IMG/VR virus record: IMGVR_UViG_3300031857_016023
Span: 1-64,000 of that record
Direction: 5' to 3' (one strand)
Source of the DNA: a virus
Length of the DNA: 64,000 nucleotides
Shown here: piece by piece, positions 997 through 51,829 of the stretch
Position numbering within the stretch: the first letter of the stretch is position 1
Layout of the letters: each line of letters begins with the position of its first letter
Made by a program: the position numbers and the translations under genes
Notes under the pieces: model-generated
Seen by the model: only the letters and a program-made list of their open reading frames with translations
Databases searched by the model: none
What the model was told of the DNA's origin: nothing

Positions 997-1653
997 TTAG
1001 CAGTTCCACTTCCTTAATGCTTTGTTGATACGGCTATCTGGATCATTGGCAGTTTTAGCAGATGTTAAACGCTTCTTCATTCCACCCATACGAGCACAAA
1101 ATGATTTACGGCGATTGGCTGACTTTGAACCAGGTTTTAATTTACTTGGCTTTGTAGTAACTGCCATAGAAAGTTTTGAACCTGGATTTTCACGGCGATA
1201 CGATTCAATACCTTTACGATTCAAACCGCCAGATTCAGATTTACCTTCTTTGCGTTGCCATGCAGCAACTTCATCCAAATATTCTTCGTGTAATTCTTTT
1301 ACACTTTTAATAGTTTTTTGTTGATGGTTTGGATGAACTTTTACATGAGAGTTATCAATTACATGCCTTAGAGCATCTTCATGGCTACTGTGCTCATTTT
1401 CTCCTCTAAATTCTACACCTTTAATGTGTTTAAATTGATGGTGTGGAGAACCAGTATGATGACCAGAATGTTGAGAAGTATGGTAGTCGCCATCTTTATA
1501 ATGGTCGACATAACCAATATGATGCACTTCTTTGGAACCATGAGGTTTGTAATAAACTCCATGGGTTGATCCTTCTTTATCTGAATATTGTTTATGCAGA
1601 TAAAGAGTGCCGCCGTTACTTTCTTCCGTGATAAATGATTTAAAAGATTTCAT
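997..1653 (-). CDS. DUF6321-like phage protein with T4-type capsid-targeting N-terminus
   Basis: This is a 218-residue protein in two parts. The first half is rich in His, Gly and Ser (many HH pairs around residues 40-100). The basic C-terminal half, about residues 128-218, carries AAWQRKEGKSESGGLNRKG, SYRRENPGSKL, SFCARMGGMKKRLT and a terminal LRKWNC, matching the DUF6321-type domain of T4-like phages as I remember it. The conserved Cys residues and basic patches could bind metal or nucleic acid, but the function is unknown. The first ten residues, MKSFKSFITE, match the capsid-targeting tag of T4 internal proteins (see findings), so packaging in the head is inferred. It overlaps the end of the upstream kinase gene by four bases, so it is probably translationally coupled and under the same late promoter. 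Confidence 0.78.
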   Translation of the reverse strand: MKSFKSFITEESNGGTLYLHKQYSDKEGSTHGVYYKPHGSKEVHHIGYVDHYKDGDYHTSQHSGHHTGSPHHQFKHIKGVEFRGENEHSSHEDALRHVIDNSHVKVHPNHQQKTIKSVKELHEEYLDEVAAWQRKEGKSESGGLNRKGIESYRRENPGSKLSMAVTTKPSKLKPGSKSANRRKSFCARMGGMKKRLTSAKTANDPDSRINKALRKWNC

Positions 1654-4184
1654 CCTATTGGCCTTTTAGCTTTAAATGTTTTAATGTTGATACCTTTTTG
1701 TTTCAATACATTATCATTAAAATCACTCATTGATGTAGCATCTTCACCACCGGCACCAATTGCTTCTTCAAATGGTTTTTTATTCTGTTTTGTTTTCAAT
1801 GACGGCCTCTGTGCATTTTCTCCACCTGCCGACAAAGATAAACCAGGTTCAATGCCTTTGTCAATTGATTCTTTTACTTTTTCTTTTTGGCGGGAGCGGA
1901 TTTGCCCGAGCGTGATTTTTGGGGTTGGGGTTTCTTTGTTGGTGCCTTGGATTTCGATGCCGGTGCCTTTGGCGTACTCGTTGGCGCTGGTGAGCTCGGT
2001 GTAACCTTCTGAGATAAGTTGTCTGCTCTCTCCTGTGCTACTCTGGTTGATCCGTCTAGCGGATGAGTTTGACTCTCTGATTTGCCAAAAAGGTTTTTGA
2101 TTAAGTTCAACATCTTCATTCTCCTCATTTATTTTAATAACATAGCCATTTTTATAAGGCATGACTGTACCATTACTTGTATGTGCTTCTCTTGCAGCTG
2201 CGGCACGAAGCATAAATGTTCTTACTTTACCACTTTTATCTTTTAGAAGTTTAATTTCTTTTTTCTTTTCTTCTTCTAATTCAATCTCATCGATTCGTGT
2301 ACCAAGCAATAGGAGGTTTAATGATGACGAATCAGACAACTGATATGATTCTGATAATTTACCTTTGCCAAAGTTAGATACATTAATTGGTGCACCTTTA
2401 CGCTCTGGATCTGGATCATGTCGGCGTTTGGCAGAAACAGCAGATGCTCGTTCTTTCTTACTCAACTTAGCACGCTTTTCATTCGACATACATTTTGGTT
2501 TTGCTTCGCCTGGTTCACGAGCACATGGACCAATTGCTTCGCCTTTGCTGTTGATTCTTTTCCATCCACCTTTTGGATGTTTTGGATCAAACCATTGGCG
2601 CAAATCTTCGGTGAATACTTCTTCAAATTCTTCATTAACACCTTTCTTTGGTGCACCAGAAGAACTCGATACAGGAATATTTGGTTGCTGTGGTTCTTCT
2701 CTCTGTACCTCAACAAGTTTATCATGGATAGAACGATATGTAACTTTACCATTTTTACCGTAGCGGCCAAATCCATAATAAGTTAATCCTAATTTTCTAG
2801 CTTCTTCAGCAGCTCCAGAACCTGGATGTGGTGGCATTTCAGCACCTTCTTTTGGTACAGGCAATTTATCTGACAAATCTAATTCATGTGCAACCCATAA
2901 AGATGCTGCTTCTGATTTTGGTGGATCTGCTACGAATTGTTGAATATTTTTAAACAACTCTGTCATTTCATCTTTTTTAGCTTTAACAACATCCGGTGCG
3001 GCCGCTCTTAAATCTTCTGAGTTATCAAATTCAACATAACGATCACCAAACATTTTTGCTAATTCTGGTCTTGCGTTCTGAACTGCTTCCCATTTTTGAC
3101 GGCGAATATCTTCTGGTACTGTTCTACCACCACGCTGTCCTCTTTCAACATTTCTTTGCGCTGATACTTCATCATTTGTATTGACCATAATCATTGAAGT
3201 ATCATAACCAATTTCTTCTAAGCGATCTTTAATGCGACCAATCTTTTCATGGTCATCACCTGTGCCGTTAATGATAAGACCATTACGACCCATCAACGCT
3301 AAACGCTGACGTAATTCGGTCATATTTTTGGCTTTACCACGAACAACATCACGCTTTTCTTTTTCAGCTTCAGGCATTGTTTTATCAAGACCTTCTTTGT
3401 CCATCAAAAACTCTAAAGCTTTATCTGAATTGATTTCAGTAAGACCGTGACCATCAAGTGTGTTGCTAAGAACATAATCTTTACCAGAACCAGGACCACC
3501 TGCTAAAAAAACTGCTTTGAAAATGGCCTTATCATGCACACCTTCAATAAGCAATTCTTGGAAATCTTCGTTTACATCTTCGTTCATTCCCATGCCTTTG
3601 CGAACATGGTTAAACATTTCTTTTGCATGAGCATCAGTCATCGCTGAAGGAACACCTTTGCGAAATTCTTTGTAATTGCCATTTGAAGCATGCTCACGCA
3701 TTTTGCTTGCTGACATACCTTCTACGCCTTCAGCATCTGGATCACGCTCACCGGCAGAATGAACTTCAATGTGTTTAAAGTTATAAGAACCATGTGGTCC
3801 TTTTACACCATTATATTTGTGTAGAAGTTTATGATATTCTTCGGCACGGTCTGAGCCGCCAACCATGTGGAAATGTGTTACACCTTGTTTGTGTAACTTT
3901 GCGGCTTGTGCTAGGAAATTTGGTGCAGATGCGTCAGATGACGATACATTGACGCCAGGAAAAGCACGCTTAGCATGCTTGAGTTTTTGTGCGGGAGAAA
4001 GAGGATTTTTCTTTGGATCTTGTGAGTGCGAAACAACGATATGTGCAGAACCACCAACTTTTTTGGCAATTTCTTGTACTTTATTGACAAGTTTTTCATG
4101 GCCAACTGTAATTGGGTTCATACGCCCAAAGGCCATTACTGCATGTTTTTCTTTCTGCTCTAGCAGAAAATCGCTAAATTTCAT
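1650..4184 (-). CDS. Nucleotidyltransferase / P-loop kinase fusion with C-terminal DUF5872-like region
   Basis: This 844-residue multidomain protein starts with a capsid-tag-like MKFSDFLLE. Residues about 14-180 form a cytidylyltransferase-type nucleotidyltransferase: GRMNPITVGH at 20-29 is the HIGH-family motif and SASKMRE at 158-164 is the ISSSxxR-like motif. Residues about 220-400 form a P-loop kinase with AGGPGSGKD at 228-236. Residues about 540-615 hold a lysine- and cysteine-containing module (DPKHPKGGWKR, then MSNEKRAKLSKKERA) like the DUF5872 domain. The last ~150 residues are low complexity and overlap an out-of-frame gene. The substrate is unknown. The NadR-like order of transferase then kinase recalls NAD salvage, but a polynucleotide substrate is equally possible. 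The late promoter TATAAATA lies about 36 bp upstream of the start. Confidence 0.85.
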   Translation of the reverse strand: MKFSDFLLEQKEKHAVMAFGRMNPITVGHEKLVNKVQEIAKKVGGSAHIVVSHSQDPKKNPLSPAQKLKHAKRAFPGVNVSSSDASAPNFLAQAAKLHKQGVTHFHMVGGSDRAEEYHKLLHKYNGVKGPHGSYNFKHIEVHSAGERDPDAEGVEGMSASKMREHASNGNYKEFRKGVPSAMTDAHAKEMFNHVRKGMGMNEDVNEDFQELLIEGVHDKAIFKAVFLAGGPGSGKDYVLSNTLDGHGLTEINSDKALEFLMDKEGLDKTMPEAEKEKRDVVRGKAKNMTELRQRLALMGRNGLIINGTGDDHEKIGRIKDRLEEIGYDTSMIMVNTNDEVSAQRNVERGQRGGRTVPEDIRRQKWEAVQNARPELAKMFGDRYVEFDNSEDLRAAAPDVVKAKKDEMTELFKNIQQFVADPPKSEAASLWVAHELDLSDKLPVPKEGAEMPPHPGSGAAEEARKLGLTYYGFGRYGKNGKVTYRSIHDKLVEVQREEPQQPNIPVSSSSGAPKKGVNEEFEEVFTEDLRQWFDPKHPKGGWKRINSKGEAIGPCAREPGEAKPKCMSNEKRAKLSKKERASAVSAKRRHDPDPERKGAPINVSNFGKGKLSESYQLSDSSSLNLLLLGTRIDEIELEEEKKKEIKLLKDKSGKVRTFMLRAAAAREAHTSNGTVMPYKNGYVIKINEENEDVELNQKPFWQIRESNSSARRINQSSTGESRQLISEGYTELTSANEYAKGTGIEIQGTNKETPTPKITLGQIRSRQKEKVKESIDKGIEPGLSLSAGGENAQRPSLKTKQNKKPFEEAIGAGGEDATSMSDFNDNVLKQKGINIKTFKAKRPIG
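1874..2113 (-). CDS. Candidate out-of-frame overlapping gene, Pro/Ala/Lys-rich small basic protein
   Basis: This 79-codon frame lies entirely inside the 3' part of the nucleotidyltransferase-kinase gene, in another frame on the same strand. I chose the ATG at 2113 because GAGGAG sits seven bases upstream; an ATG at 2128 lies too close to this site to use it. The product begins MLNLIKNLFGKSESQ and ends in a Pro/Ala/Thr/Lys tail (PTSTPKAPASKSKAPTKK, then SAPAKKKK), like small histone-tail-like phage proteins. Over this stretch the host frame has unusually C-rich third positions and GC reaches about 52-57 percent, as expected if both frames constrain the sequence. It could still be a chance frame in a low-complexity region. 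Confidence 0.5.
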   Translation of the reverse strand: MLNLIKNLFGKSESQTHPLDGSTRVAQERADNLSQKVTPSSPAPTSTPKAPASKSKAPTKKPQPQKSRSGKSAPAKKKK

Positions 4185-4219
4185 ATCTCTCCCGCCTCTA
4201 CAGCGTTACATTGATATGC

Positions 4220-4227
4220 TATTTATA
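4220..4227 (-). promoter_or_regulatory. T4-type late promoter (TATAAATA)
   Basis: The minus strand reads TATAAATA, the exact T4 late -10 element, about 36 bases upstream of the nucleotidyltransferase-kinase start at 4184 and in the gap after the methyltransferase gene. The window encodes the matching late sigma factor (gp55-like). It should drive the unit running to the left edge. Confidence 0.75.
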
Positions 4228-4231
4228 CGGT

Positions 4232-4939
4232 TTAATCTGTTCTAAATGTAACAAAACCACCATGCATTTTAGGAACTGAGTCTGGTTGCATGACTATTCT
4301 TGACATTCCTATCTCCATAGGAATCTTTTCGCCAACATTGCCTTTATCAAAAACAATGATAGAATCGTACACAGACATACATTTAACATTACGAGTGAAA
4401 TAATCAGGTTCTTTCTGGCCTCTAGCATGATCTGCATTGATACTATCAATCATACCTTTTGCGACATTATTAATTGATTCTGGTTCTTTAATACTTCCAC
4501 CATGAGAATCCCAATATGCTGCATGAGTATCTTCAATGAAGTAAATGCCATCATCTGCCAATTTTGGAAATAAAAATTGAAAGGTTTTATTAACATGAGC
4601 AACATGATGTGAACCATCATCAATAATCAAATCGAAAGCTCCAAATTCATCAATTAGACTTTGTAGAAATTTTTCATCAGTTTGATCACCAATACGAACA
4701 TTTATGCCTTCTTGTTCATGCTGCTTGCATAAAGGATTAATATCTATGCCAACGATTGTAGCTTCTGGAAAATAATAACGCCACATTTCTAAAGAACCAC
4801 CATTTAAAATACCAATTTCTAGTATCTTAATTGGTTTATTACGAATAGGAGTAAAATGCTTTTCGTAAATTGGAAAGTAATGTTTCCATTTTGTAATTTT
4901 TTTACCTTTATTTGTTGTAAAATAGTTCCATAGTTCCAT
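4232..4939 (-). CDS. Class I SAM-dependent methyltransferase (TylF/macrocin-type)
   Basis: This 235-residue protein has a Rossmann-type SAM-binding core. LEIGILNGGSLEMW at about 40-53 is motif I, GIDINPLC at about 84-91 is motif II with the acidic ribose ligand, and IIDDGSHHVAHV at about 125-136 with YFIEDTH at about 153-159 matches macrocin O-methyltransferase (TylF) and cephalosporin-hydroxylase-like enzymes, where the Asp/His residues bind a divalent metal. An O-methyltransferase acting on a sugar is likely because the gene ends the glycan island and follows sugar-nucleotide genes. The start codon overlaps the upstream stop (TAATG), with GGAG eight bases before the ATG. The acceptor sugar cannot be read from sequence. 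Confidence 0.82.
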   Translation of the reverse strand: MELWNYFTTNKGKKITKWKHYFPIYEKHFTPIRNKPIKILEIGILNGGSLEMWRYYFPEATIVGIDINPLCKQHEQEGINVRIGDQTDEKFLQSLIDEFGAFDLIIDDGSHHVAHVNKTFQFLFPKLADDGIYFIEDTHAAYWDSHGGSIKEPESINNVAKGMIDSINADHARGQKEPDYFTRNVKCMSVYDSIIVFDKGNVGEKIPMEIGMSRIVMQPDSVPKMHGGFVTFRTD

Positions 4940-5649
4940 TAGTATTTCTCCGTTTCACCTGATCCAGCAACAATGCCAGAGCATTTTATTCTATCAAATT
5001 CAATAACATATCTTCTATCTAGGCACAAGTAATGAGCATGTTCAGTATCAATTCCGTGTGTCATAACATTACTTATCATTGGTCCTATTGTTTGTAAGTA
5101 ATTATCTAATAAAGATGGGCAGAAAGAATACATTCGTGTAATATACAAATGGTCAGTAATGTTTGTTTTTCTTTCTGGTGACATCCAAGAAGGGATAGAT
5201 TTTTTAAAAACATATTTGCCATACATGTTATTATATTCTGAAATATCAAAATCTTCGTCTAATAAAGTTCTAGCAGAGTATTTAAAAATTCTTTTTACAC
5301 CATGTAAAAAACCCATCAGTTGAGGATTTTGCTTGAATTGCATGAGTGTATTAAATAACATCAACAATTCAGCTTCACTTTTTTTGCCTGTTTTAGCAAA
5401 GTTATTAATATCTGGATGAGTAGTAAACCATAAAGCTTGACAATAGTTACCAATTATTTCCTTTATTTTATCAGGAACAGGTTCAGGAGATCCATCAACG
5501 AAAAGAACTGCCGCTTCAGGCACTCTATCTCTTAAATTATTTAAGGTGTTTATTGTTTGTTCTAAACGATCATCACTATTAACAACACCAATGTTAGCAT
5601 TTAATGCTGAAGTGACGATGAATAGGTTTCTATCCGGTATAAAGCTCAT
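4939..5649 (-). CDS. Uncharacterised protein of the glycan island, possibly glycosyltransferase-like
   Basis: I do not recognise this 236-residue protein with certainty. It starts with a beta strand and loop (LFIVTSALNANIG), followed by a helix rich in Arg/Asn/Leu and the acidic segment VLFVDGSPEPVP at about 48-59. That layout resembles the nucleotide-sugar half of a GT-A transferase, but no clear DxD motif can be named. It has no signal peptide or membrane segment. It overlaps the epimerase gene upstream and the methyltransferase downstream, so it belongs to the same sugar-modification operon. A role in making or transferring a glycan is inferred from context only. Confidence 0.6.
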   Translation of the reverse strand: MSFIPDRNLFIVTSALNANIGVVNSDDRLEQTINTLNNLRDRVPEAAVLFVDGSPEPVPDKIKEIIGNYCQALWFTTHPDINNFAKTGKKSEAELLMLFNTLMQFKQNPQLMGFLHGVKRIFKYSARTLLDEDFDISEYNNMYGKYVFKKSIPSWMSPERKTNITDHLYITRMYSFCPSLLDNYLQTIGPMISNVMTHGIDTEHAHYLCLDRRYVIEFDRIKCSGIVAGSGETEKY

Positions 5650-6640
5650 AATTTTGTTTCATTGATTCAATCATTAATGATTCAATGTCCTTGTTTGGTT
5701 TCCAATTTAATAATTCCTCGGCCTTTTTCGTGCAGCCTAACGAAAACTTTTTTACTTCATTTTCAATTACAAAATCTTGTATGGGTTTGGTGCCTTCATA
5801 TAAATCATCGTATCCTGACCAATATTTAGCAGGCGGATCAAACTTATAATCAAAGCTGCCAAAAGCCTTCTTCGCATATACAACAATATCACTTACAGAA
5901 GTTAATGTACCAGTACAAACATTAAAGATTTCTCTATCAGTTCTTGGCAATACTTTTTCAATCATTGACACCACATCATCAACATGAATATAATCTCTTG
6001 GATGATTACCAGAAGAATAGAGTGTGATTGGTTCTTTTCTTTTGACCTGACGCACAATATAATTCATCAGAGGTGGTGATTTACGGTGAATATCTTGCCG
6101 TGGGCCAAACACATTGAAGAATCGTAATGTAGTAATGTTCATATCATAGTTGCGTATGAATGATTGTATTGTTTCTTCCATTAGTTTCTTTGACAATGGA
6201 TAAAACAACTTCGGCGTTACAATAGAAGATTCTTTAAATGGCGCTTCTTTTGGATCATTGTTCTCATAGATTGCTGATGTGCTAGCAACAATGACATGGA
6301 TACCTTTACGGCGTGCTGCATTAAGTATATTGGCTGTACCGCCAACATTTACATCAATACAAGTGTGTGGATCTATTTCACATTGAGGCAAAGAAGAAAT
6401 AGCTGCAAGATGAATCACCACATCAATCTCATGGTAATCAAAGTAATTTGATAATTGTAGATAAGGGAGTCTAATATCACCTTTGATAAATTGACAAAAG
6501 AATTCACCGTTCTCTTTTAGATTTTCTTCGTAGCCGTTATTCAGATTATCATAGGCAATCACTTTATGGCCATTCTGTGACAACTTTAATGATAGCGTAG
6601 AACCAATGCCGCCTGCAGCTCCTGTAATAAAGATATTCAA
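5630..6640 (-). CDS. NAD(P)-dependent sugar epimerase/dehydratase (extended SDR)
   Basis: This 336-residue protein is a full-length extended short-chain dehydrogenase. GAAGGIG at 7-13 is the glycine-rich NAD-binding motif, IHLAA at about 75-79 follows, and the catalytic pair is Y146/K150 in YPLSK. LRFFNVFGPRQD and PRDYIHVDDV at the expected C-terminal positions resemble UDP-glucose 4-epimerase and related dehydratases. It probably interconverts or dehydrates a nucleotide sugar in the cytoplasm. Translation starts at a TTG at 6640 that overlaps the preceding stop (TTGA); AGGAG seven bases upstream supports this unusual start. The upstream gene supplies a sugar nucleotidyltransferase, a natural partner. 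Confidence 0.9.
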   Translation of the reverse strand: MNIFITGAAGGIGSTLSLKLSQNGHKVIAYDNLNNGYEENLKENGEFFCQFIKGDIRLPYLQLSNYFDYHEIDVVIHLAAISSLPQCEIDPHTCIDVNVGGTANILNAARRKGIHVIVASTSAIYENNDPKEAPFKESSIVTPKLFYPLSKKLMEETIQSFIRNYDMNITTLRFFNVFGPRQDIHRKSPPLMNYIVRQVKRKEPITLYSSGNHPRDYIHVDDVVSMIEKVLPRTDREIFNVCTGTLTSVSDIVVYAKKAFGSFDYKFDPPAKYWSGYDDLYEGTKPIQDFVIENEVKKFSLGCTKKAEELLNWKPNKDIESLMIESMKQNYELYTG

Positions 6641-7650
6641 ATCAAATCTCCTAAATCTTCACTATCTCTTTTGATATTGACAGCAAGGGCAGTAGGATAT
6701 GGGTTTGAACTTGCATAATCATTTATCAATATTCGTTTGCTATGATGAATACCCATAATCAAAGGACAACCACCAAAACCCAATTCGTCTAGCATATTCA
6801 TTGTCAATATGCCATATTTGTCCGGTCTGGATGTGGTAAATACAATCTTACATCCTCGCCTTTTTTCTTTTAATAGAGCAGTCACATTGTCCCAAAGTGG
6901 TTCACATGGCTCATTGTAGTCCCATTTTGATTTAACAATAGTGCCATCAATATCACAGAAGTATGTTGGTTTATTATTGAAATCAAACCAATCTTCTGCG
7001 GTGCCAACATCGATAAAGTTTTCTACTTCACTTTCAAAAAATATATTGTTTTGCGAAATCATGTAATCTACAATATTAGAAACAAATATTTCACCAGTTG
7101 TAGATAGTTTATCGAAAGCATCAACGAAACTTTGTGCTGTTTCAAACTGATAGCCACCAACACAGAAATGGTCACTTACAATTCTTTTCTCTACAACTGA
7201 ATTGATGATGCCTTGGTCATTTGTAAGTGTGTAACTTTTGGCACCTGCCGTTCTTATACTTGGATGTTTTGAAAGGTTAGCAACATAGATTATATTACCT
7301 TCTTGTTCGTTTGTTTCATAAAAACCATCACAGTCTTTAATGAGTAAAGCAGAAGATAAATTGACACGACCTCGTTTGATTGCTTGATAAACGGTATCTG
7401 CTGGGCCTGAAGTAAGTTTATCTAGTATCACAATATCAATTTTATTACCAAATGCCTCATTTAATTTTTTTCGAGCCATGTATTTTTCATCATGCTCCTT
7501 TAGAATGACAATTGTAACACGGTTTTTGCCTATGTAATGTTCTGCTGCATTTTCAACCATTAATCGACCAGAATAATCTGTCAGTAGGTATTTTGGTCGC
7601 ATATTAGGAAACCGTGATGAAGCACCGGCGCAAGGAATAATTACTTCCAT
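6637..7650 (-). CDS. Sugar-phosphate nucleotidyltransferase fused to HAD phosphatase
   Basis: This 337-residue protein has two domains. Residues about 1-225 are an NTP-transferase: IIPCAGASSRFPNMRPK at 4-20 is the nucleotide-binding GxG..R..PK signature, LLIKDCDGF at about 102-110 carries the metal-binding Asp, and NFIDVGTAEDW at about 211-221 is the C-terminal signature. Residues about 228-337 are a HAD-superfamily phosphatase with the nucleophile motif DIDGT at 233-237, TTSR at about 273-276 and a distal acidic segment (LINDYAS). The pair could dephosphorylate a sugar bisphosphate and activate the product, as GmhB and HddC do in GDP-heptose synthesis, but the substrate is inferred. It overlaps both neighbours by a few bases. 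Confidence 0.86.
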   Translation of the reverse strand: MEVIIPCAGASSRFPNMRPKYLLTDYSGRLMVENAAEHYIGKNRVTIVILKEHDEKYMARKKLNEAFGNKIDIVILDKLTSGPADTVYQAIKRGRVNLSSALLIKDCDGFYETNEQEGNIIYVANLSKHPSIRTAGAKSYTLTNDQGIINSVVEKRIVSDHFCVGGYQFETAQSFVDAFDKLSTTGEIFVSNIVDYMISQNNIFFESEVENFIDVGTAEDWFDFNNKPTYFCDIDGTIVKSKWDYNEPCEPLWDNVTALLKEKRRGCKIVFTTSRPDKYGILTMNMLDELGFGGCPLIMGIHHSKRILINDYASSNPYPTALAVNIKRDSEDLGDLI

Positions 7651-8348
7651 AATTTTCTTATCTCACTTTCAACAAAATACTTATCATCATTAACATGCGT
7701 ATAAGGTAAAACTCGCATCAACATTAGTATTAACAAATAATCACTATAATAGCAGGTGTATGTTTTAAGTGTATCTTCTAATACTTTTAGTTTAGAATCA
7801 AAAAAGAGAATATCTTTACGAATGAACCATTTACACTTAATATCCTGCATCAACTTTGCTAAATCAAATACATATGAATCATATTCTGTGGTCAATGGGT
7901 CAATCAATATAAAACCACCATTCACCTCATATAAAATGTTTTCTAGTGTCAAATCACCATGATATTCGGAAGATGGTAGTGTTTTTGGCAATTTAGCATA
8001 CAACTCACTTGCAGTAAAAGGTAGTTCATATTGATTCCAAGGAAATACGGAAAGTTTTTGGTCATAAATTTTAGAATAATCTTTTTCTATCGTTTGACTG
8101 GACATTATGTTTAAAGTGTTTGTCAGAAATTCACAAAGTTTACTCACATCATGTGTTGTTAGATATGTTTTAATATCTTGGTGTTGGATGTATTCCATAT
8201 CATATGCATCACCATATACATCCAACAATTTTGGTATTGGTAGATGAAGTCGAGAAAGAGCATCATATCGTTCCAAATTACGGCCAACGCCGCCAGTCTT
8301 TCGAACAAAGATACGATGGTCTTTCTGCATCAATTCAACTTTACTCAT
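7641..8348 (-). CDS. Aminoglycoside-phosphotransferase/choline-kinase-like enzyme
   Basis: This 235-residue protein has the APH-type kinase catalytic signature: YHGDLTLENIL with H130, D132 (catalytic base) and N137, then LIDP with D150 as metal ligand, and FDLAKL shortly after. The N-terminal lobe is short and lacks an obvious glycine-rich loop, as is usual for phage versions. I chose the ATG at 8348 because AAAGG lies seven bases upstream; a longer frame starting at TTG 8384 lies inside the preceding gene. Its place beside sugar-nucleotide genes suggests phosphorylation of a small sugar, amino alcohol or glycan substituent such as choline or ethanolamine. That substrate is inferred. Confidence 0.78.
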   Translation of the reverse strand: MSKVELMQKDHRIFVRKTGGVGRNLERYDALSRLHLPIPKLLDVYGDAYDMEYIQHQDIKTYLTTHDVSKLCEFLTNTLNIMSSQTIEKDYSKIYDQKLSVFPWNQYELPFTASELYAKLPKTLPSSEYHGDLTLENILYEVNGGFILIDPLTTEYDSYVFDLAKLMQDIKCKWFIRKDILFFDSKLKVLEDTLKTYTCYYSDYLLILMLMRVLPYTHVNDDKYFVESEIRKLWK

Positions 8349-8371
8349 TGAATGGCCTTTCAATTGTTTTA

Positions 8372-9076
8372 TTACTTTTGCCAAAATTCAAAATCTTCTC
8401 TCAACAATGAATGCCATGTTCCGTTGTGTGGGCCTGGTGGAAATGGATGATTTGGATTAAAGTAAACTAAATTTTCACCAACCAATCCTTTTTCACGCCA
8501 ATTTGCAGCCATCATTTCTTCACCAATCATAATTGTGCCACGGTCATAAAACTTTTCAATTTGATTAAAACAATCTGCGTATTTGTCCATATTAGAAGAA
8601 GATGAAAAAGCAAACTGGTCATTACCAAAATCTCTCTGTGGTGTCATTCGACAATTTGGAATATAAAGTTTACTATTGTCCAATTCAGTAAAAGGTATTG
8701 TAAGATTGATAGCAAAATCGTAGCGAGAACGAATAACCCAATCGTAAGTTTTAGTTTTTTCTTCTTCATGTATAATTTTTAGTTCATTAGCTTTCATCAG
8801 AGAGTATGTTAGATTCCATGCAGCACGAGCAGGATCTTTTACTTTCCAATTTGGTTGTGGTGGCGGAACTCTAGTAAACTTCGACAGGTCATTTGTTAAA
8901 GGTTTTTCTATCATTGTTGCAACTGGTGCATAAGCAGAAACATCTTCTACACCAGGTGAATCCCACACATGACAAAATACATCTACATCATAAAGGTCTA
9001 ATAAATTATTTTTGTGATATTCATAACCTTGTTTAACACATCTTGGTTGTCCACTTAAACATAATGCAATTTTCAT
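8372..9076 (-). CDS. Glycosyltransferase-like protein (SGQPR family)
   Basis: This 234-residue protein starts MKIALCLSGQPRCVKQGYEY, a signature of a poorly described family of predicted GT-A-like transferases in surface-glycan loci. A VFCHVWDSP segment at about 33-41 and DWVIRSRYDFAI at about 132-143 follow; the latter supplies the R-x-D element where a metal or nucleotide would bind. It is related in plan to its upstream neighbour (SGQLR, then CHNWQ, then STRYDID), so the two look like diverged paralogues. It lies in the second glycan island and probably adds a sugar in the cytoplasm. The donor and acceptor are unknown. Confidence 0.72.
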   Translation of the reverse strand: MKIALCLSGQPRCVKQGYEYHKNNLLDLYDVDVFCHVWDSPGVEDVSAYAPVATMIEKPLTNDLSKFTRVPPPQPNWKVKDPARAAWNLTYSLMKANELKIIHEEEKTKTYDWVIRSRYDFAINLTIPFTELDNSKLYIPNCRMTPQRDFGNDQFAFSSSSNMDKYADCFNQIEKFYDRGTIMIGEEMMAANWREKGLVGENLVYFNPNHPFPPGPHNGTWHSLLREDFEFWQK

Positions 9077-9085
9077 TTTTTAATT

Positions 9086-9799
9086 TTACCTTTGTATTGA
9101 TAGCGATAAATTACCTTCAAGTAAAGAGTATATGTTTTTTTCAAAATAGTTTTTTAAAATTAACATATGGGGGCAATATCTCTGCTTATTGTGTATTTCA
9201 ATATTTGATTCTGATATTTTAACTAATTCTTTTAAATATTTAATAAATCCTTCACTAAAAGGAGTTCCAAATAAATCAACTATATTAGGATATAAAAAAT
9301 AATCTGAAGCAAATTTATTAGGGATTATAGAAAAAATATCAGAAACCATACCATAAGAATGCTCACTTGGAGTTATGACTTGATCAGGATGAGCATTTAT
9401 CATGTCTAAAACATTAATTTCTTTTTTAATGTCAATATCGTATCTAGTTGAAACAAAAAAATCATATTTTAAATTAACCAACTCAAAAGCTTTTCTTTTA
9501 CCATAATGTAATGAGATAGAATTTATAAGTTTATCAGGAGTAACTAAATTTTTTGGATTTTTTTGTTGAATTTCTTTTTGCATTTCTTCAAATAGAGGAA
9601 CATTAACATCATAATTTTCTATTAATTGTTTTGTAGGAATTAACACTTCATTTACAAGATTAACATTTGATTCTTGCCAATTATGGCAATATACATCTAA
9701 ATTATTAAATTTAACAAATTCTGATATTTTTTGCCAAGTTTGCGTAAATGATCTTAATTGACCAGAGAGAAGTAAAGCTCCTTTTTTCATTTTATCCAT
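9086..9799 (-). CDS. Glycosyltransferase-like protein (SGQLR family paralogue)
   Basis: This 237-residue protein has the same layout as its downstream neighbour: GALLLSGQLRSFTQTW at the N-terminus, VYCHNWQES at about 36-44 and FFVSTRYDIDIKKE at about 114-127. Sequence similarity outside these blocks is low, so divergence is old or the copies were acquired separately. I keep the ATG at 9799, which has GAGG about six bases upstream and overlaps the preceding stop. Base composition is more AT-rich than neighbouring genes. A cytoplasmic sugar transferase is the likely role. Confidence 0.66.
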   Translation of the reverse strand: MDKMKKGALLLSGQLRSFTQTWQKISEFVKFNNLDVYCHNWQESNVNLVNEVLIPTKQLIENYDVNVPLFEEMQKEIQQKNPKNLVTPDKLINSISLHYGKRKAFELVNLKYDFFVSTRYDIDIKKEINVLDMINAHPDQVITPSEHSYGMVSDIFSIIPNKFASDYFLYPNIVDLFGTPFSEGFIKYLKELVKISESNIEIHNKQRYCPHMLILKNYFEKNIYSLLEGNLSLSIQR

Positions 9800-10631
9800 A
9801 TTTTGCCTCTAATATTTTTCTCCAATTAGGAATCCTATCATATTGATGAACAATTGTAAAGGGTATCCCGGTAGATGTTGTAACAATATTAACACTCATT
9901 TTTGGTTCCGCTTCTATTAAAAATGGCCTGAACTTTTCAATCTTTGTTGGATCTCCTGTCGTGCCAAGTTGTGCAGCCCAAGCATCTTCCGACCTCAAAT
10001 ATACAGAAGTTTCTTTATACGGCGACATTGAAATCATAAAGTTGAATGTAGATTGGTCACAAATAGGAATTGGTCTGCCTTGCGTGGCAACAAAGATATT
10101 ACAAATCAAATCACGCAGAGCATGACCACGACCTGCAAGAACACCCACATTATAAATTTCATTATCTTTAAATTTACTGTAAATGAAATCACCAAAAGTT
10201 TGGTGTAGATTTTCATTTCCCCATGGTTCATCTTTGTAATACATGCTCTCAGAAGCAAACATCAGGTTCTTATCGTCAGTCAAAGCCTTTTCGATATAGT
10301 GAATCGGATTTTGTTGGAAAATAACATCTTTCACATCAGTAGTGATAGCATACCGATATTCATTTTGTGAAAGGTAATTGTAGATATGCAAGAATCTTTC
10401 CACATGCGGAGCTCGACCCGTTTGTGGATAAGTTAGATTTCCTTGTGTGTCTTGTTGAAAACCTACAACAATAAAACCGGCGTCAGAAACTTTCTTTACC
10501 GTATCTTTGTCGCAGTTCATTAGAATCAGGACTTTATCACCTTGAAATCCTGATTTGTTGATTGAGTTAACCCAATACTTTAAAACATTCCAATCGTAGT
10601 TACTGGCACCACCAATTATCAAATCTTTCAT
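9792..10631 (-). CDS. Predicted GT-A glycosyltransferase
   Basis: This 279-residue protein begins with a Rossmann-like strand (DLIIGGASNYDWNVLKYW) and carries YAITTDVKDVIFQQNP at about 93-108, a DxxD-like metal and nucleotide-sugar site. SEDAWAAQLG and a C-terminal FTIVHQYDRIPNW follow. The plan matches phage and bacterial transferases that act on LPS or capsule. It opens the second glycan island after the 10653-14662 late cluster; GAGG lies about seven bases before the ATG. It may modify phage DNA bases, virion proteins or a host surface glycan. Sequence alone does not decide. Confidence 0.72.
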   Translation of the reverse strand: MKDLIIGGASNYDWNVLKYWVNSINKSGFQGDKVLILMNCDKDTVKKVSDAGFIVVGFQQDTQGNLTYPQTGRAPHVERFLHIYNYLSQNEYRYAITTDVKDVIFQQNPIHYIEKALTDDKNLMFASESMYYKDEPWGNENLHQTFGDFIYSKFKDNEIYNVGVLAGRGHALRDLICNIFVATQGRPIPICDQSTFNFMISMSPYKETSVYLRSEDAWAAQLGTTGDPTKIEKFRPFLIEAEPKMSVNIVTTSTGIPFTIVHQYDRIPNWRKILEAKYG

Positions 10632-10652
10632 AACGACCTCATTGTATATTAA

Positions 10653-10979
10653 TTACTTATGCTTGCTATAGTCCTTAAACCGTTTAATTTCTTGGCCTGG
10701 TGTTGCATTTTGATAATTTCGCCGAAGTGTGTCTGTTCCCCATTGGCCCGCACCAGCAACAGGCAATATATCAGGTTTTATTTCTTCGCTCACACTTTTA
10801 TGAAGTTTCACATTGGTAACAGACTGCACATGTTTCCAAGCAGCTTGAGTATCTTTATTCTTTATATGTTGTTCGAGCTTCTTCTTTTGTTCTGCGTTGG
10901 CCTTTTGATGAAACTTAAACATTTCCATCGCACCAATATTGCCAACATAAGCGGCTTCGTCTACCTTACTTTTAAACAT
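10653..10979 (-). CDS. Uncharacterised T4-like phage protein
   Basis: I chose the ATG at 10979, giving 108 residues, because it overlaps the upstream stop (TAATG) and has GAGG five bases before it; a longer frame would run 67 bases into the upstream gene. The product has a Lys/Gln-rich helical middle (KANAEQKKKLEQHIKNK) and a conserved-looking end (VAGAGQWGTDTLRRNYQNAT, then PGQEIKRFKDY). I recall this ending from hypothetical proteins of marine T4-like phages but cannot assign a role. It is the last gene of the unit driven by the late motif at 14691. Confidence 0.68.
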   Translation of the reverse strand: MFKSKVDEAAYVGNIGAMEMFKFHQKANAEQKKKLEQHIKNKDTQAAWKHVQSVTNVKLHKSVSEEIKPDILPVAGAGQWGTDTLRRNYQNATPGQEIKRFKDYSKHK

Positions 10980-11251
10980 TAACCCCTCGTCAACTTTAAT
11001 ATTTTTTGCATTTGTTTTTCGATGATTGGTCCACGGTTTGGCCAATGAATATATGGTTGACTAGCAGTTTTATAAAGATTGGTAAGAAAAGGCATAATAA
11101 TTTTTTCTACTTGTTCTAGCCTTGCTTTATATTCTTCAACTGTTTCATCTTTTTCGGCAATAACTGCCTGATATTCGGCCTCGTCAACTGTGGTAAAACC
11201 AAAGTCATCATCACCATATTGTTTAAGAATGTCATTGATGTTGTATGTCAT
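10979..11251 (-). CDS. Small uncharacterised phage protein
   Basis: The start at 11251 gives 90 residues and uses a TAATG overlap with the stop of the ligase-like gene; an ATG four codons earlier is inside that gene and has no better ribosome site. The protein is helical and acidic at the N-terminus (QYGDDDFGFTTVDEAEYQ), with a heptad-like EEYKARLEQVEKII segment that may form a coiled coil. No catalytic motif or membrane segment is visible. It probably works with its neighbours in the late cluster. Confidence 0.66.
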   Translation of the reverse strand: MTYNINDILKQYGDDDFGFTTVDEAEYQAVIAEKDETVEEYKARLEQVEKIIMPFLTNLYKTASQPYIHWPNRGPIIEKQMQKILKLTRG

Positions 11252-12477
11252 TATTTGTCCCAATTCTTTGCTGCATTGAAGTTTGCTTGACTGAATTCTA
11301 AACGATCAACCAATTTAACAGCATTACCTTTTAATCTATCTACTGCAACAAAACCTTCTGGTGCAGTAATTCTGAAACCACTATCTGTTTTTACAAATGT
11401 GCCAATTGTTTTAACTGTTTCTAATTTACGAATAATCATTAGTTTAGCATCCACCAATAAATTTTGTAAATCAAAAATTGATCTTAGTTGCGCTGCATTT
11501 TGACGAAAAAACCGCATAAGTTCTGTTTTTGCTGCAATTCGTTTTCGTTTTGTTTCTTCTTTCTTTACATCAGCAATATCTTTATTTAGCTTAGCTTCAA
11601 TCCAACGTATCAATTCAAGTGTGTGCTGGTTTGTATTGGTAATTTTTGCACCTTGGCGAACTTTAGCATTATTAAATGTTTTAATGTAAGTTTTAATTGT
11701 TTCGTTTGAAGAAATACGATTCAAAGTCATCGAGGACATACTTTGAAATGTGCGGCCCGCCAGTGAAAGAATTGTGGTTAATTGTTTTGTTTCTTCTTCT
11801 GTAAATGTAGCAGAACCAGAAATGTCAACAAATGAGGCATCACGGAACCAAATATCTTTGGTATTCGTAAGGCCACCAATATCAACATTAAAAGATGCCT
11901 TCATATCCTGCATCTTTTTGCCTGTATATGATGTATGAAACACCACACCTACCTGAGCATCTAGCATCGAGCGAGCCAGTTTAGTATCAGAAGGTACCGC
12001 ATAGACAATGGTATTTGGTTGAAATGTAATGTAAGATTGATTATCGATTACTTGCTTGTCAATATCACCTTTTGTAAACATCATATCGCCTTGCAGGACA
12101 CCTTTGATGCCAAGTTTTGGTAGATAACGCAAAGCTATTTTGAGTTTTTTATTCAGACCTTCTGTTGGATGGTTCTCATCAATGTCATCTTCTGTATAGT
12201 TTAATTTTGGATTGACATTGAAAACGCCTTTGGTGCCAACAAAGAACTTACCATTTTCTGGATTAATGCCAGCAAAAATAGCAGGTGCACCATCCCATTT
12301 GGTGGTGACATTTACTTTAGTATCAGCATGACCTGCTAACATATTGCGAAGTGCTTGTAGAAAGTTGATGGCAGACCTGGCACCTGATACGCCAAAATTT
12401 AGAACTTCATCCTCAATATGCTCGAGGTGAACATTTTTACCTTCTTTGCTTTCCGTTAAGTATTCTGTAAAATTCAT
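11251..12477 (-). CDS. DUF6267-like protein with ligase-superfamily motifs; capsid-tag N-terminus
   Basis: This 408-residue protein resembles the T4-like-phage DUF6267 family. It shows the order of motifs expected of ATP-dependent ligases and capping enzymes: KWDGAPAIF with K60 as candidate nucleotidyl lysine (motif I, KxDG), LQGDMMF at 128-134 (motif III-like), a strand NTIVYAVP at about 155-162, PEGFVAV at 373-379 (motif IV-like EGxV) and VKLV with K388 (motif V-like). About 190 residues of mostly helical sequence lie before motif IV, which is unusual. The protein starts MNFTEYLTE, like a T4 capsid-targeting tag. A polynucleotide ligase or nucleotidyltransferase delivered with the DNA is my inference. 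Confidence 0.72.
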   Translation of the reverse strand: MNFTEYLTESKEGKNVHLEHIEDEVLNFGVSGARSAINFLQALRNMLAGHADTKVNVTTKWDGAPAIFAGINPENGKFFVGTKGVFNVNPKLNYTEDDIDENHPTEGLNKKLKIALRYLPKLGIKGVLQGDMMFTKGDIDKQVIDNQSYITFQPNTIVYAVPSDTKLARSMLDAQVGVVFHTSYTGKKMQDMKASFNVDIGGLTNTKDIWFRDASFVDISGSATFTEEETKQLTTILSLAGRTFQSMSSMTLNRISSNETIKTYIKTFNNAKVRQGAKITNTNQHTLELIRWIEAKLNKDIADVKKEETKRKRIAAKTELMRFFRQNAAQLRSIFDLQNLLVDAKLMIIRKLETVKTIGTFVKTDSGFRITAPEGFVAVDRLKGNAVKLVDRLEFSQANFNAAKNWDK

Positions 12478-13583
12478 TAGCTATACTTTATAAAAATACT
12501 ACTGTTTTTTGTAGCAGATGAAGCATATTCAAAAATGTATTTGCAGAATTCATCTTCTTTTTTAGATTGTAATACTGCATAAACTAAACTAATACCAAGG
12601 TATTTGGACATCCACCAAGTTTTATCTTTTCTATGGCCAGCTTTTGCTTGCATTATTAAATCTTCTAAACTTTCTTTAGATTTTGACAAATATTTAAACA
12701 TCGTAGCAAATTCTTTGAAATCGGAATCTTTTGGTTTTTCAATTGGTACTTGATTGGGTTGTGTTAACTTTGTTCTAGGAACTCCAGCTTCTATAGCACC
12801 AGACATTACAACTCCACCACCAATTTTTCCGCCTGCTGCACTTTTACCTTTAATTTCACCTTGCCAAGAAGATGGTTGTGGTCTACTAGAAAAATTTCGA
12901 AATTGAATTTCACCATCTACACCTTCTGATTTATATTGAATGTAAATATCTTTTGAATCAAACATATTTGCGCCAAGTTTTATTCCTTTAAACTGTGCTA
13001 TAAGTGGTTTACCATTATTAAAAATTTTAGAGTGTGCTTCAGTTGCTTTAGGATCTAATTTTTTCAGAGAAATACCAATTAAATTGGTTTTCGCAAATTC
13101 ATCATAGATGTAACGATTATAATCTCTGAGAGTTGGCCACCCTTCTTTTAATCTGAAATCTTTTTTGGCCATCCAAATATCAGCAGGATTCCATTTATCA
13201 TCACCACTAATGCCACTATCTTTTTTAAATTTTCTCCATTGATCATAAATGGAATCTACGAACCTACCGCCACGATAAAATTTAAATCTTTTTCCTGTTT
13301 TAGCACCAGGCACTTCTTCAAAAATTTTATTTGATGTTTTTACAATGCTGAGAAACCACTTTTCATCCAAACCTTTCATGCATTGTTTTAGTGTTCTATC
13401 ACAGTCGGCGTCAGAAATTGTTCTTTCTGTAACTTGTGAAATATCACCAAGAGGTTTACCATAATGCTGTCTTGTAGCACAAGCATAAGCTTGTAAAGAT
13501 TCAGCAAGTGCAGTTACTTCTGCGCCGGCACCAGATTGGCCTGAAGTATCAGTATTAACTTTAGTAGGAATTTTCATATTCAT
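12477..13583 (-). CDS. Phage protein with possible PD-(D/E)XK nuclease-like core
   Basis: I do not know this 368-residue family by name. WNPADIWMAKK at 131-141 followed by LIGISLKKL at 168-176 has the spacing of an acidic residue then [ILV]SLK, as seen in restriction-endonuclease-like folds. A Gly/Ala/Ser-rich stretch at about 240-265 (KSAAGGKIGGGVVMSG) looks like a linker. The C-terminal third is helical and basic. ATGs at 13583 and 13577 are both possible starts. The gene lies between another candidate nuclease and a ligase-like gene in one late unit, which suggests nucleic-acid processing. Confidence in the gene is high and in the function low. Confidence 0.66.
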   Translation of the reverse strand: MNMKIPTKVNTDTSGQSGAGAEVTALAESLQAYACATRQHYGKPLGDISQVTERTISDADCDRTLKQCMKGLDEKWFLSIVKTSNKIFEEVPGAKTGKRFKFYRGGRFVDSIYDQWRKFKKDSGISGDDKWNPADIWMAKKDFRLKEGWPTLRDYNRYIYDEFAKTNLIGISLKKLDPKATEAHSKIFNNGKPLIAQFKGIKLGANMFDSKDIYIQYKSEGVDGEIQFRNFSSRPQPSSWQGEIKGKSAAGGKIGGGVVMSGAIEAGVPRTKLTQPNQVPIEKPKDSDFKEFATMFKYLSKSKESLEDLIMQAKAGHRKDKTWWMSKYLGISLVYAVLQSKKEDEFCKYIFEYASSATKNSSIFIKYS

Positions 13584-13591
13584 GTGCCATA

Positions 13592-14662
13592 CTATATTTT
13601 TGAAAAATTTATTTGATTATTGAAATTTATATCTGGTTCAAACTCAAAAAATTCCATAATTCTTTTTATTCCACCTTTTAACCATTCTATTACTTTTTCA
13701 AAAAGATCTGTAACAAAATCTTTAATTTTTTTAAAAATTCCAGTAATTATATTTTCTGTTAAAAATATACCATCATAATAATCAAATTCTTCTTTTAATT
13801 TTTTAGCTATCAAACCAACAACACCATAATAATGGTATCGGCCAGTTTTAACTTTTTCAATTTTTTGGGACATTGTTTTAAATCGGCAATCTACATTTGT
13901 CACTTCAGAAACTTTTTTAATTAGTTGTTTATTTTTTATTTTAGCGAATTTATTATTTTGCCCATTTTCGTCCGTAGAAAGTAACCAAATAGCCTTAGCT
14001 TTAGAATCACCAAATTTAACTTCACCACTCATAGCTTCATATACGAAATTATATTTAAATTCTTGATTTTCATTAAATAAATTTTCTAACATATTTTTTA
14101 TTTCATGGTTTATTTTATTTGCTTTTTCAAGAACAATATCATTTCCTTTTTTTAAAGCTTCTCTGGTACCTCCTTCTTTTGTAAGCGTTAGTTCACTAAG
14201 CTTGTTCAATTTTAAATATATTTCTTTTGCTAAGTTTTCTGATTGCACACTTGGGGTGTTTTTAACCGCTGCATAAAAAGTAGCTTTGGCTTCTCTTTTT
14301 CCACCAGACATTAATTGTGCATCTCCCATTTTTATTGATATTCTTTCGTTACCTATTACAATATCAGTTTTTGGTGTTTTGGTTCCTCCTGCTACATTAT
14401 ATGGTTTCCAAAATTCTGCCCATTCATCAGTAACTTCCATACTTTTTAATTTATAAGCTTTTGTTCCAGTTACACCTTGTTGTTTTAAAAACTTAACAAT
14501 GTTTTTTCCAGCCTGAGGTGATATTTTAGTTTTTTTTGAAAGTTTTGGAGGTTCAGTATTATTCCACGCAGAAACAATAACTAATTCCATTTTAGAACCC
14601 TCAGAATTAGATTCATTCAAAAACTGAATATCCTCAGAAATAAATTGTTTGAATGGTTTCAT
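13592..14662 (-). CDS. Candidate PD-(D/E)XK-fold phage protein with capsid-tag N-terminus
   Basis: This 356-residue protein begins MKPFKQFISE, a close match to the T4 internal-protein tag, with [IL]-x-E before the predicted gp21 cut. TPKTDIVIGNERISIKMG at 96-113 gives D100 and S109-x-K111, the layout of a PD-(D/E)XK-like active site with a substituted middle acid. AQLMSGGKREAKATFYAA follows. YEAMSGEVKFGDSKAKAIWL at about 210-229 resembles a conserved block in T4-like phage hypotheticals. The C-terminus is amphipathic and hydrophobic (ITGIFKKIKDFVTDLFEKVI) and might contact membrane. It is the first gene after the late motif GATAAATA at 14691, so late expression and packaging fit together. Confidence 0.72.
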   Translation of the reverse strand: MKPFKQFISEDIQFLNESNSEGSKMELVIVSAWNNTEPPKLSKKTKISPQAGKNIVKFLKQQGVTGTKAYKLKSMEVTDEWAEFWKPYNVAGGTKTPKTDIVIGNERISIKMGDAQLMSGGKREAKATFYAAVKNTPSVQSENLAKEIYLKLNKLSELTLTKEGGTREALKKGNDIVLEKANKINHEIKNMLENLFNENQEFKYNFVYEAMSGEVKFGDSKAKAIWLLSTDENGQNNKFAKIKNKQLIKKVSEVTNVDCRFKTMSQKIEKVKTGRYHYYGVVGLIAKKLKEEFDYYDGIFLTENIITGIFKKIKDFVTDLFEKVIEWLKGGIKRIMEFFEFEPDINFNNQINFSKI

Positions 14663-14690: not shown

Positions 14691-14698
14691 TATTTATC
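14691..14698 (-). promoter_or_regulatory. Late promoter motif (GATAAATA)
   Basis: The minus strand reads GATAAATA, matching the NATAAATA form described for cyanophage late promoters, about 28 bases upstream of the gene starting at 14662 and overlapping the 3' end of the preceding gene. It should drive the 14662-10653 cluster. Confidence 0.6.
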
Positions 14699-51821: not shown

Positions 51822-51829
51822 TATTTATA
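51822..51829 (-). promoter_or_regulatory. T4-type late promoter (TATAAATA) for gp22-gp23
   Basis: An exact TATAAATA on the minus strand lies in the gap between gp21 and gp22, 23 bases before the gp22 start. It gives the scaffold-capsid transcript. Confidence 0.85.

What the first reader, a model, noticed from the sequence alone, without database searches (positions are those of the whole stretch)
997..14662. T4-type capsid-targeting tags on four predicted enzymes and accessory proteins
Four proteins start with near-identical short sequences: MKSFKSFITE (997-1653), MKFSDFLLE (1650-4184), MNFTEYLTE (11251-12477) and MKPFKQFISE (13592-14662). T4 internal proteins (IPI, IPIII) start MKTYQEFIAE, a capsid-targeting sequence cut by gp21 after [LI]-x-E. 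The match in length, aromatic residues and [FYL][IL]xE end is close. The proteins are otherwise unrelated (nucleotidyltransferase-kinase, DUF6321-like, ligase-like, nuclease-like). Two of them lie directly behind late promoters (4220, 14691). I infer a set of head-packaged, injected enzymes acting at the start of infection.
Basis: partly seen in the sequence, partly recalled or inferred. Interest (0 to 1): 0.87.

Follow-up and report, generated by a model that had tools for sequence, protein, structure and literature searches.

The report
Head-packaging tags on phage enzymes
A T4-like phage marks four unrelated proteins, most of them probable enzymes, with the short N-terminal address label that T4 uses to load proteins into its head for injection; published mass spectrometry of related cyanophages finds tagged relatives in the particles, which suggests a little-recognised cargo system in these phages.

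Summary
All four proteins exist at the stated coordinates (minus strand, ATG starts) and begin with aromatic-x-x-aromatic-[LI]-x-E, the four positions shown by mutation to matter in the T4 IPIII capsid-targeting sequence. Chance expectation in this 124-kb genome is 0.015; none of 2000 shuffles reaches four. In 119 loci, mostly relatives, the tag follows 102 of 2481 N-terminal ATGs and 2 of 6747 internal Mets; further loci gave 55 of 1928 against 0 of 2882. The phage encodes gp21 protease, gp22, gp23 and portal. DUF6321 and RWF relatives are also in virions. Not shown: packaging in this phage, cleavage, injection, enzyme activity. DUF6267 and the nuclease-like protein have no virion-detected homologue.

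The parts
1624..1653 (-). Capsid-targeting tag MKSFKSFITE of the DUF6321 protein (997-1653)
   Evidence: DUF6321 E 1.5e-17; tag directly joined to the DUF6321 domain in L049, L032, L046
997..1653 (-). DUF6321 / phrog_727 cargo protein
   Evidence: DUF6321 proteins S-CREM2 gp137 and S-SCSM1_29 are listed as virion proteins
4158..4184 (-). Capsid-targeting tag MKFSDFLLE of the 844-aa protein
   Evidence: F3, F6, L7, E9 invariant while positions 2, 4, 8 vary in 13 sequences
3594..4157 (-). Cytidylyltransferase/NMNAT-like domain (residues 10-197)
   Evidence: phrog_3041 E 5e-68; homologues in virions of S-SM1, S-SZBM1, S-SCSM1, S-CREM2
3540..3563 (-). Internal tag/protease-like motif FQELLIEG (residues 208-215) at the NMNAT-kinase border
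   Evidence: F208, E214, G215 invariant; x-E-G at the kinase junction throughout the homologues; stand-alone kinase of HTVC008M starts MIPFILKEG
2877..3539 (-). Zeta-toxin/AAA_33-like P-loop kinase domain (residues 216-436)
   Evidence: PF06414 E 2.9e-11, PF13671 E 2.2e-7
2694..2816 (-). About 40-residue 'LGL-Y-GFGRY' mini-domain (residues 457-497)
   Evidence: HMM finds it in S-CREM2 gp14 (E 2e-8) and S-SM1 NMNAT (E 1e-5) directly after their tags, and in the S-CRM01 kinase (E 0.003)
2607..2627 (-). Internal tag/protease-like motif FEEVFTE (residues 520-526) before the RWF domain
   Evidence: F520 and E526 invariant in a variable linker; stand-alone RWF protein in L063 starts MKEFNQFVKEE
2349..2606 (-). 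RWF domain (phrog_727/3477 type, residues 527-612)
   Evidence: HMM finds virion-listed S-SCSM1_29 (E 1.2e-12) and S-CREM2 gp160 (E 7e-10)
4220..4227 (-). Exact T4-type late promoter element TATAAATA upstream of the 844-aa gene
   Evidence: a second exact copy precedes gp22 at 51822-51829
12451..12477 (-). Capsid-targeting tag MNFTEYLTE of the DUF6267 protein
   Evidence: E9 invariant in 48 sequences down to 40% identity
11251..12477 (-). DUF6267 protein, ligase/nucleotidyltransferase-like (KWDG), tagged
   Evidence: PF19782 E 2.6e-114; K60, D62, G63 invariant; model matches to ligases recurrent but below significance
14633..14662 (-). Capsid-targeting tag MKPFKQFISE of the nuclease-like protein
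   Evidence: tag state in 27 homologues; residues 1-18 predicted flexible, pLDDT below 50
13592..14662 (-). Nuclease-like protein (possible restriction-endonuclease fold), tagged
   Evidence: best PDB match HinP1I, E 0.003, prob 0.99, TM 0.30-0.40
14691..14698 (-). Weak late-promoter-like GATAAATA upstream of the nuclease-like gene
51833..52483 (-). gp21 prohead protease (Peptidase_S77)
   Evidence: PF03420 E 6.7e-36; phrog_207 E 1.8e-72
50744..51799 (-). gp22 head scaffold (the core that T4 tags bind)
   Evidence: phrog_237 E 2.8e-82
49382..50719 (-). gp23 major capsid protein, with a candidate gp21 site (ILME|A)
   Evidence: phrog_138 E 1.5e-156; N-terminus
54303..55958 (-). gp20 portal
   Evidence: phrog_213 E 1.1e-204

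Best explanation
The four N-terminal peptides are capsid-targeting sequences of the T4 type. During late assembly the tag (aromatic-x-x-aromatic-[LI]-x-E) should dock each protein onto the gp22 prohead core. The gp21 protease then cuts after the E, freeing the proteins inside the head, and they enter the host with the DNA to act before phage genes are expressed. In the 844-aa protein the same kind of motif stands before the kinase and before the RWF domain, so it is probably a cargo polyprotein that gp21 splits into separate enzymes. Shown here: the tags and their non-random position; conservation of exactly the residues important in T4; the complete gp20/21/22/23 head set; and presence in published virion proteomes of the homologous cytidylyltransferase, DUF6321 and RWF proteins and of other tagged enzymes. 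Inferred: packaging in this phage, cleavage after E, injection, polyprotein splitting and what the enzymes do in the host.
For: Pattern and chance: (4 observed, 0.015 expected). Position: 102/2481 N-terminal ATGs against 2/6747 internal Mets; replication on further loci 21/1928 (strict) or 55/1928 (wider) against 0/2882. Same residues as in T4: in IPIII residues 4 and 7 direct targeting and 8 and 10 processing (PMC9026906); here F, F, L, E are invariant while positions 2, 4 and 8 vary. Tags on unrelated families. Virion MS: S-CREM2 gp6, gp13, gp14, gp136, gp154 tagged and detected; S-SZBM1_140; S-SCSM1_91; S-SM1 cytidylyltransferase; S-CRM01 kinase. Pooled 7/11 against 123/708, p=0.0009. Other domains of the same proteins in virions. 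gp21 present. Border motifs. In both structure models the tag is predicted flexible.
Against: No proteomics exists for this phage. Four of 11 tagged proteins in the three MS genomes were not detected (S-CREM2 gp175; S-SZBM1_191 and 192; S-SCSM1_30), although MS depth was modest. The wider pattern was settled after S-CREM2 had been seen; the earlier strict pattern alone gives 3/3 there (p=0.013, one start being GTG) but 0/2 in S-SZBM1. In T4 the wider pattern also hits RNase H and misses IPI and Alt. The S-CREM2 authors warn that abundant enzymes may merely co-purify. DUF6267 and the nuclease-like protein have no virion-detected homologue. The genes lie beside replication genes, and the late promoter is not statistically striking. 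No N-terminal peptide showing cleavage after E is known.
Confidence: 0.87

Rival explanations
1. The tags target proteins to the prohead core, but the enzymes act in the head or are carried passively; they are not injected effectors.
For: Injection is not shown for any of them. T4 core proteins gp67, gp68 and gp22 also sit in the core and are destroyed there. S-SZBM1_191 and S-SCSM1_30 are tagged, small and undetected.
Against: Cargo is enzymatic and varied (SAM lyase, kinases, nucleotidyltransferases), which makes little sense for assembly alone. T4 internal proteins and Alt are injected.
Confidence: 0.2
2. The peptide is a docking motif for something other than the head, such as the sliding clamp, placing these enzymes at the replisome.
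For: T4 clamp-binding tails look superficially alike (gp55 ...SLDFLYEAND, gp43 ...SLDFLFG), and the genes lie next to gp41.
Against: Those clamp motifs are C-terminal and lack the first aromatic. The tag is strictly N-terminal, matches T4 IPII/IPIII, and tagged enzymes are in virions.
Confidence: 0.05
3. The virion MS signals are contamination by abundant late proteins, and the N-terminal similarity is a translation-initiation or ancestry effect.
For: The S-CREM2 authors raise incomplete purification. A-rich MK starts are common in phage genes (general knowledge).
Against: Conservation is at the protein level at specific spaced residues, tags sit on non-homologous proteins, the motif recurs inside the 844-aa protein at domain borders, and detection correlates with the tag.
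Confidence: 0.05

Closest known systems
T4 capsid-targeting sequence of internal proteins IPII/IPIII (Mullaney and Black 1996, as described in PMC9026906)
   Same: N-terminal, 9-10 residues, aromatic-x-x-aromatic-[LI]-x-E, on non-homologous proteins, in a phage with gp21 and gp22.
   Different: Cargo here is large, mostly probable enzymes rather than small anti-restriction proteins; the register is shifted by one residue in two tags; similar motifs also occur inside a multidomain protein; relatives infect aquatic bacteria rather than enterobacteria.
T4 Alt (head-packaged ADP-ribosyltransferase, cut at both ends by gp21)
   Same: A packaged enzyme with an N-terminal gp21-removed propeptide (MELITELFDE).
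   Different: Unrelated enzyme; Alt's tag lacks the two aromatics.
Polyvalent proteins / virion-embedded multidomain effectors (described in PMC9503650)
   Same: Several enzyme domains in one virion-bound protein thought to act early in infection.
   Different: Here domains are separated by protease-type tag motifs, and the leader is a T4-type tag rather than a fusion to a head protein.
NMNAT-like / cytidylyltransferase virion proteins of cyanophages (T4-GC190; S-SM1, S-SZBM1, S-SCSM1, S-CREM2)
   Same: Homologous domain, tagged, detected in virions.
   Different: The passages of those papers that were read report presence without a packaging signal; here the domain is fused to a kinase and an RWF domain.

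Membership tests
T4-type capsid-targeting sequence | Short (about 10 residues) and at the very N-terminus | tested here: met
T4-type capsid-targeting sequence | Aromatic residues at targeting positions 4 and 7 (IPIII numbering) | tested here: met
   F/F or F/Y in all four; both F invariant in 13 sequences of the 844-aa family
T4-type capsid-targeting sequence | [LI]-x-E processing site at positions 8-10 | tested here: met
   ITE, LLE, LTE, ISE; E9 invariant in 48 DUF6267 sequences
T4-type capsid-targeting sequence | Shared by otherwise unrelated proteins of one phage | tested here: met
T4-type capsid-targeting sequence | Phage encodes gp21 (S77) protease and gp22 core | tested here: met
T4-type capsid-targeting sequence | Tagged protein is a virion component | tested here: inconclusive
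   Met for homologues of the NMNAT, DUF6321 and RWF domains through published MS; no data for this phage, for DUF6267 or for the nuclease-like protein
T4-type capsid-targeting sequence | Propeptide removed by gp21 after E | not testable with these tools
   needs N-terminal peptides from virions
T4-type internal proteins | Injected into the host | not testable with these tools
   needs an infection experiment
NadR (NMNAT + ribosylnicotinamide kinase) | NMNAT-type nucleotidyltransferase fused to a P-loop kinase | tested here: inconclusive
   Domain order fits, but the kinase scores as zeta-toxin/AAA_33 and only weakly as other kinases
ATP-dependent ligase superfamily (DUF6267) | KxDG adenylylation motif and ligase fold | tested here: inconclusive
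   KxDG invariant; the fold search repeatedly lists ligases but no hit is significant (best E 0.24-0.26)

The most novel reading that the evidence does not exclude
T4-like phages of aquatic bacteria run a general cargo system. A modular address label is attached to many unrelated enzymes, and in some phages cargo is encoded as a polyprotein whose units, each led by its own tag-like site, are separated by the prohead protease inside the capsid, delivering a timed enzyme kit (nucleotidyltransferase, kinase, SAM lyase, ligase-like, nuclease-like) at the moment of infection.
Probability: 0.45. Interest if true: 0.88.

Novelty: new variant of a known kind. Interest (0 to 1): 0.76.

Why it matters
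Cyanophage virion studies have reported enzymes such as SAM lyase, kinases and cytidylyltransferases in particles without saying how they get there, and one suggested they might be contaminants. A recognisable tag gives a mechanism, makes head-packaged cargo predictable from sequence in T4-like phages, and singles out DUF6267, DUF6321 and other unknown families as probable early-infection effectors. The only paper in the searched open library that holds both 'capsid targeting' and 'cyanophage' uses the second word in its reference list; subscription papers could not be searched.

Tried and rejected
Late promoters as support: exact TATAAATA is no commoner than chance (3 against 6.1 expected), so it is only weakly supportive. 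Clamp-binding motif: considered and disfavoured. PDB sequence searches for DUF6267 and the nuclease-like protein gave nothing useful. The DUF6267 structure model gave only sub-threshold ligase matches. PADLOC and NCBIfam added only a partial DruA match for a neighbour and a weak cyt_tran_rel match. S-CREM1 proteomics found only 14 proteins and gave no usable table in the main text. Jumbo-phage NMNATs of SP27 and Paride lack the tag although those phages have S77 proteases, so protease presence alone does not predict a tag. The original papers on S-PM2, Syn9, S-CRM01 and S-CBWM1 proteomics were not read; statements on S-CRM01 and S-CBWM1 rest on PMC10665884.

Full report
WHAT WAS CHECKED. The window is bases 1-64,000 of a 123,821-base virus record. 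All four proteins are real ORFs at the stated coordinates, on the minus strand with ATG starts, beginning MKSFKSFITE, MKFSDFLLE, MNFTEYLTE and MKPFKQFISE. No other long ORF in the record has the pattern. With residues 2-31 shuffled in all 202 ATG-ORFs, 0.015 strict matches are expected and 4 are seen; no shuffle of 2000 reaches 4.

THE PATTERN IS POSITIONAL AND CONSERVED. In 119 loci (nearly all fetched with three of the four proteins) the strict pattern follows 102 of 2481 N-terminal ATGs but 2 of 6747 internal Mets. In further loci, counting only proteins not seen before, it is 21/1928 (strict) or 55/1928 (wider pattern) against 0/2882 internal Mets. Homologues inflate the N-terminal figures, because the loci were fetched through tagged families; what the internal-Met control shows is that the pattern belongs to the start of the protein. 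Tags occur on the four window families and on further unrelated proteins: a RimK-like ATP-grasp protein in Melnitz, HAD-like and unknown proteins. In 13 sequences of the 844-aa family F3, F6, L7 and E9 are invariant, whereas positions 2, 4 and 8 vary (0.54, 0.23, 0.38). In 48 DUF6267 sequences down to 40% identity E9 is invariant although the tag in front of it varies and shortens.

MATCH TO T4. In T4 IPIII the first 10 residues suffice for packaging; residues 4 and 7 matter for targeting and 8 and 10 for processing (PMC9026906). The T4 sequence is MKTYQEFIAE for IPII and IPIII, but IPI starts MKTFKEFTSTTT. The invariant residues here fall on exactly these four positions, shifted by one in the two nine-residue tags. 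The window encodes gp20, a gp67-like prohead protein, gp21 (S77 protease), gp22 and gp23, and gp23 has a candidate ILME|A site.

TEST AGAINST PUBLISHED VIRION PROTEOMES. S-CREM2 (PMC10665884 Table 3, 52 of 219 CDS): tagged gp6 (SAM lyase, PF23780 E 2e-19), gp13, gp14 (kinase), gp136 and gp154 (cytidylyltransferase) are detected; gp175 is not. The Cas9-annotated gp12, also detected, has LRFASFMAEA at residues 17-26. S-SZBM1 (PMC9146016 Table 1, 30 proteins): tagged 140 detected, 191 and 192 not; its DUF6267 (141) has no tag and is not detected. S-SCSM1 ('virion protein' notes in the record): tagged 91 (NMNAT) noted, 30 not. Pooled 7/11 tagged against 123/708 untagged, Fisher p=0.0009; S-CREM2 alone p=0.003, or 3/3 (p=0.013) with the pattern fixed before that genome was seen. 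The pooled figure uses the wider pattern, which was settled after S-CREM2 had been inspected, and CDS totals of the three genomes counted from the records. In addition the S-SM1 cytidylyltransferase (T4-GC190, virion protein in PMC3037559) starts MKKFSAFLNE and the S-CRM01 kinase (kinases are virion proteins of S-CRM01 according to PMC10665884) starts MISFDQFLSE. S-CBWM1, which lacks an S77 protease, carries virion kinases without the tag.

OTHER DOMAINS OF THE SAME PROTEINS ARE ALSO IN VIRIONS. DUF6321 is found in S-CREM2 gp137 and S-SCSM1_29. The RWF domain is found in S-SCSM1_29 and S-CREM2 gp160. A 40-residue mini-domain of the 844-aa protein sits directly behind the tag of S-CREM2 gp14 and of the S-SM1 NMNAT. 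All of these carriers are virion-listed. The zeta-like kinase, DUF6267 and the nuclease-like protein have no virion-detected homologue in the data seen.

POLYPROTEIN HYPOTHESIS. The 844-aa protein contains the spaced aromatic/hydrophobic motif three times: at residue 3, at 208 (FQELLIEG, immediately before the kinase) and at 520 (FEEVFTE, immediately before RWF). F208, E214, G215, F520 and E526 are invariant in linkers that otherwise vary (mean identity 0.61-0.66). Across about 30 distinct junctions the kinase is preceded by x-E-G, usually with a hydrophobic residue two before the E, even when the linker differs completely. The stand-alone kinase of HTVC008M starts MIPFILKEG and a stand-alone RWF protein (L063) starts MKEFNQFVKEE. 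The motif thus travels with the domain. This fits a gp21-split polyprotein but is inference.

CARGO. Residues 10-197 are a cytidylyltransferase/NMNAT-like domain, followed by a zeta-toxin/AAA_33-like kinase. DUF6267 has an invariant KxDG; its model lists ligases repeatedly but without significance. The fourth protein resembles restriction endonuclease HinP1I weakly (E 0.003, TM 0.30-0.40). T4's injected proteins block GmrSD restriction enzymes (PMC12373910), and S-CREM2's tagged SAM lyase fits an anti-restriction role; phage NAD+ salvage has been proposed as a counter to NAD-depleting defences (PMC9503650). These roles are inference for the window phage.

LIMITS. There is no proteomics for this phage; MS co-purification is possible, as the S-CREM2 authors say; the wider pattern has false positives (T4 RNase H) and false negatives (IPI, Alt); promoter evidence is weak. 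Verdict: T4-type capsid-targeting tags, strongly supported; cleavage, injection and the polyprotein remain to be shown.

Noticed in passing
T4 AF158101 18966-19130 (gene 61.1; locus L134): T4 gene 61.1 (54 aa) starts MKTFKEFIKED, a near-perfect capsid-targeting sequence, and may be an unrecognised internal protein.
   Followed up: partly
window 2694-2816; S-CREM2 gp14; S-SM1 gene 190; S-CRM01 gene 130: A roughly 40-residue 'LGL-Y-GFGRY' mini-domain recurs, directly behind the tag in two of them, on unrelated virion enzymes; function unknown.
   Followed up: partly
window 14694-15809: 371-aa protein (phrog_19197, E 1e-131) with a partial match to Druantia DruA (Pfam E 8e-10, PADLOC E 5e-7), next to the tagged genes.
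   Followed up: no
window 4232-10631: Block of sugar-nucleotide epimerase, nucleotidyltransferase, methyltransferase and glycosyltransferase-like ORFs lying between the tagged genes (read from the translations only).
   Followed up: no
L221 (phage C48C1) 7685-9028: The annotated start of the C48C1 cytidyltransferase is too late: the frame upstream reads KNFSQYLLEE, so the tag is hidden by annotation; start errors will hide tags in surveys.
   Followed up: partly
S-SZBM1_191 (L129:17311-17628) and S-SCSM1_30 (L139:44215-44535): Similar small tagged proteins (MKSFKSFLSESVNISGDFNGNLY / MKTFKQFMSESVNISGDFNGNLY) near the terminase genes, not detected by MS; candidate short-lived core proteins.
   Followed up: no
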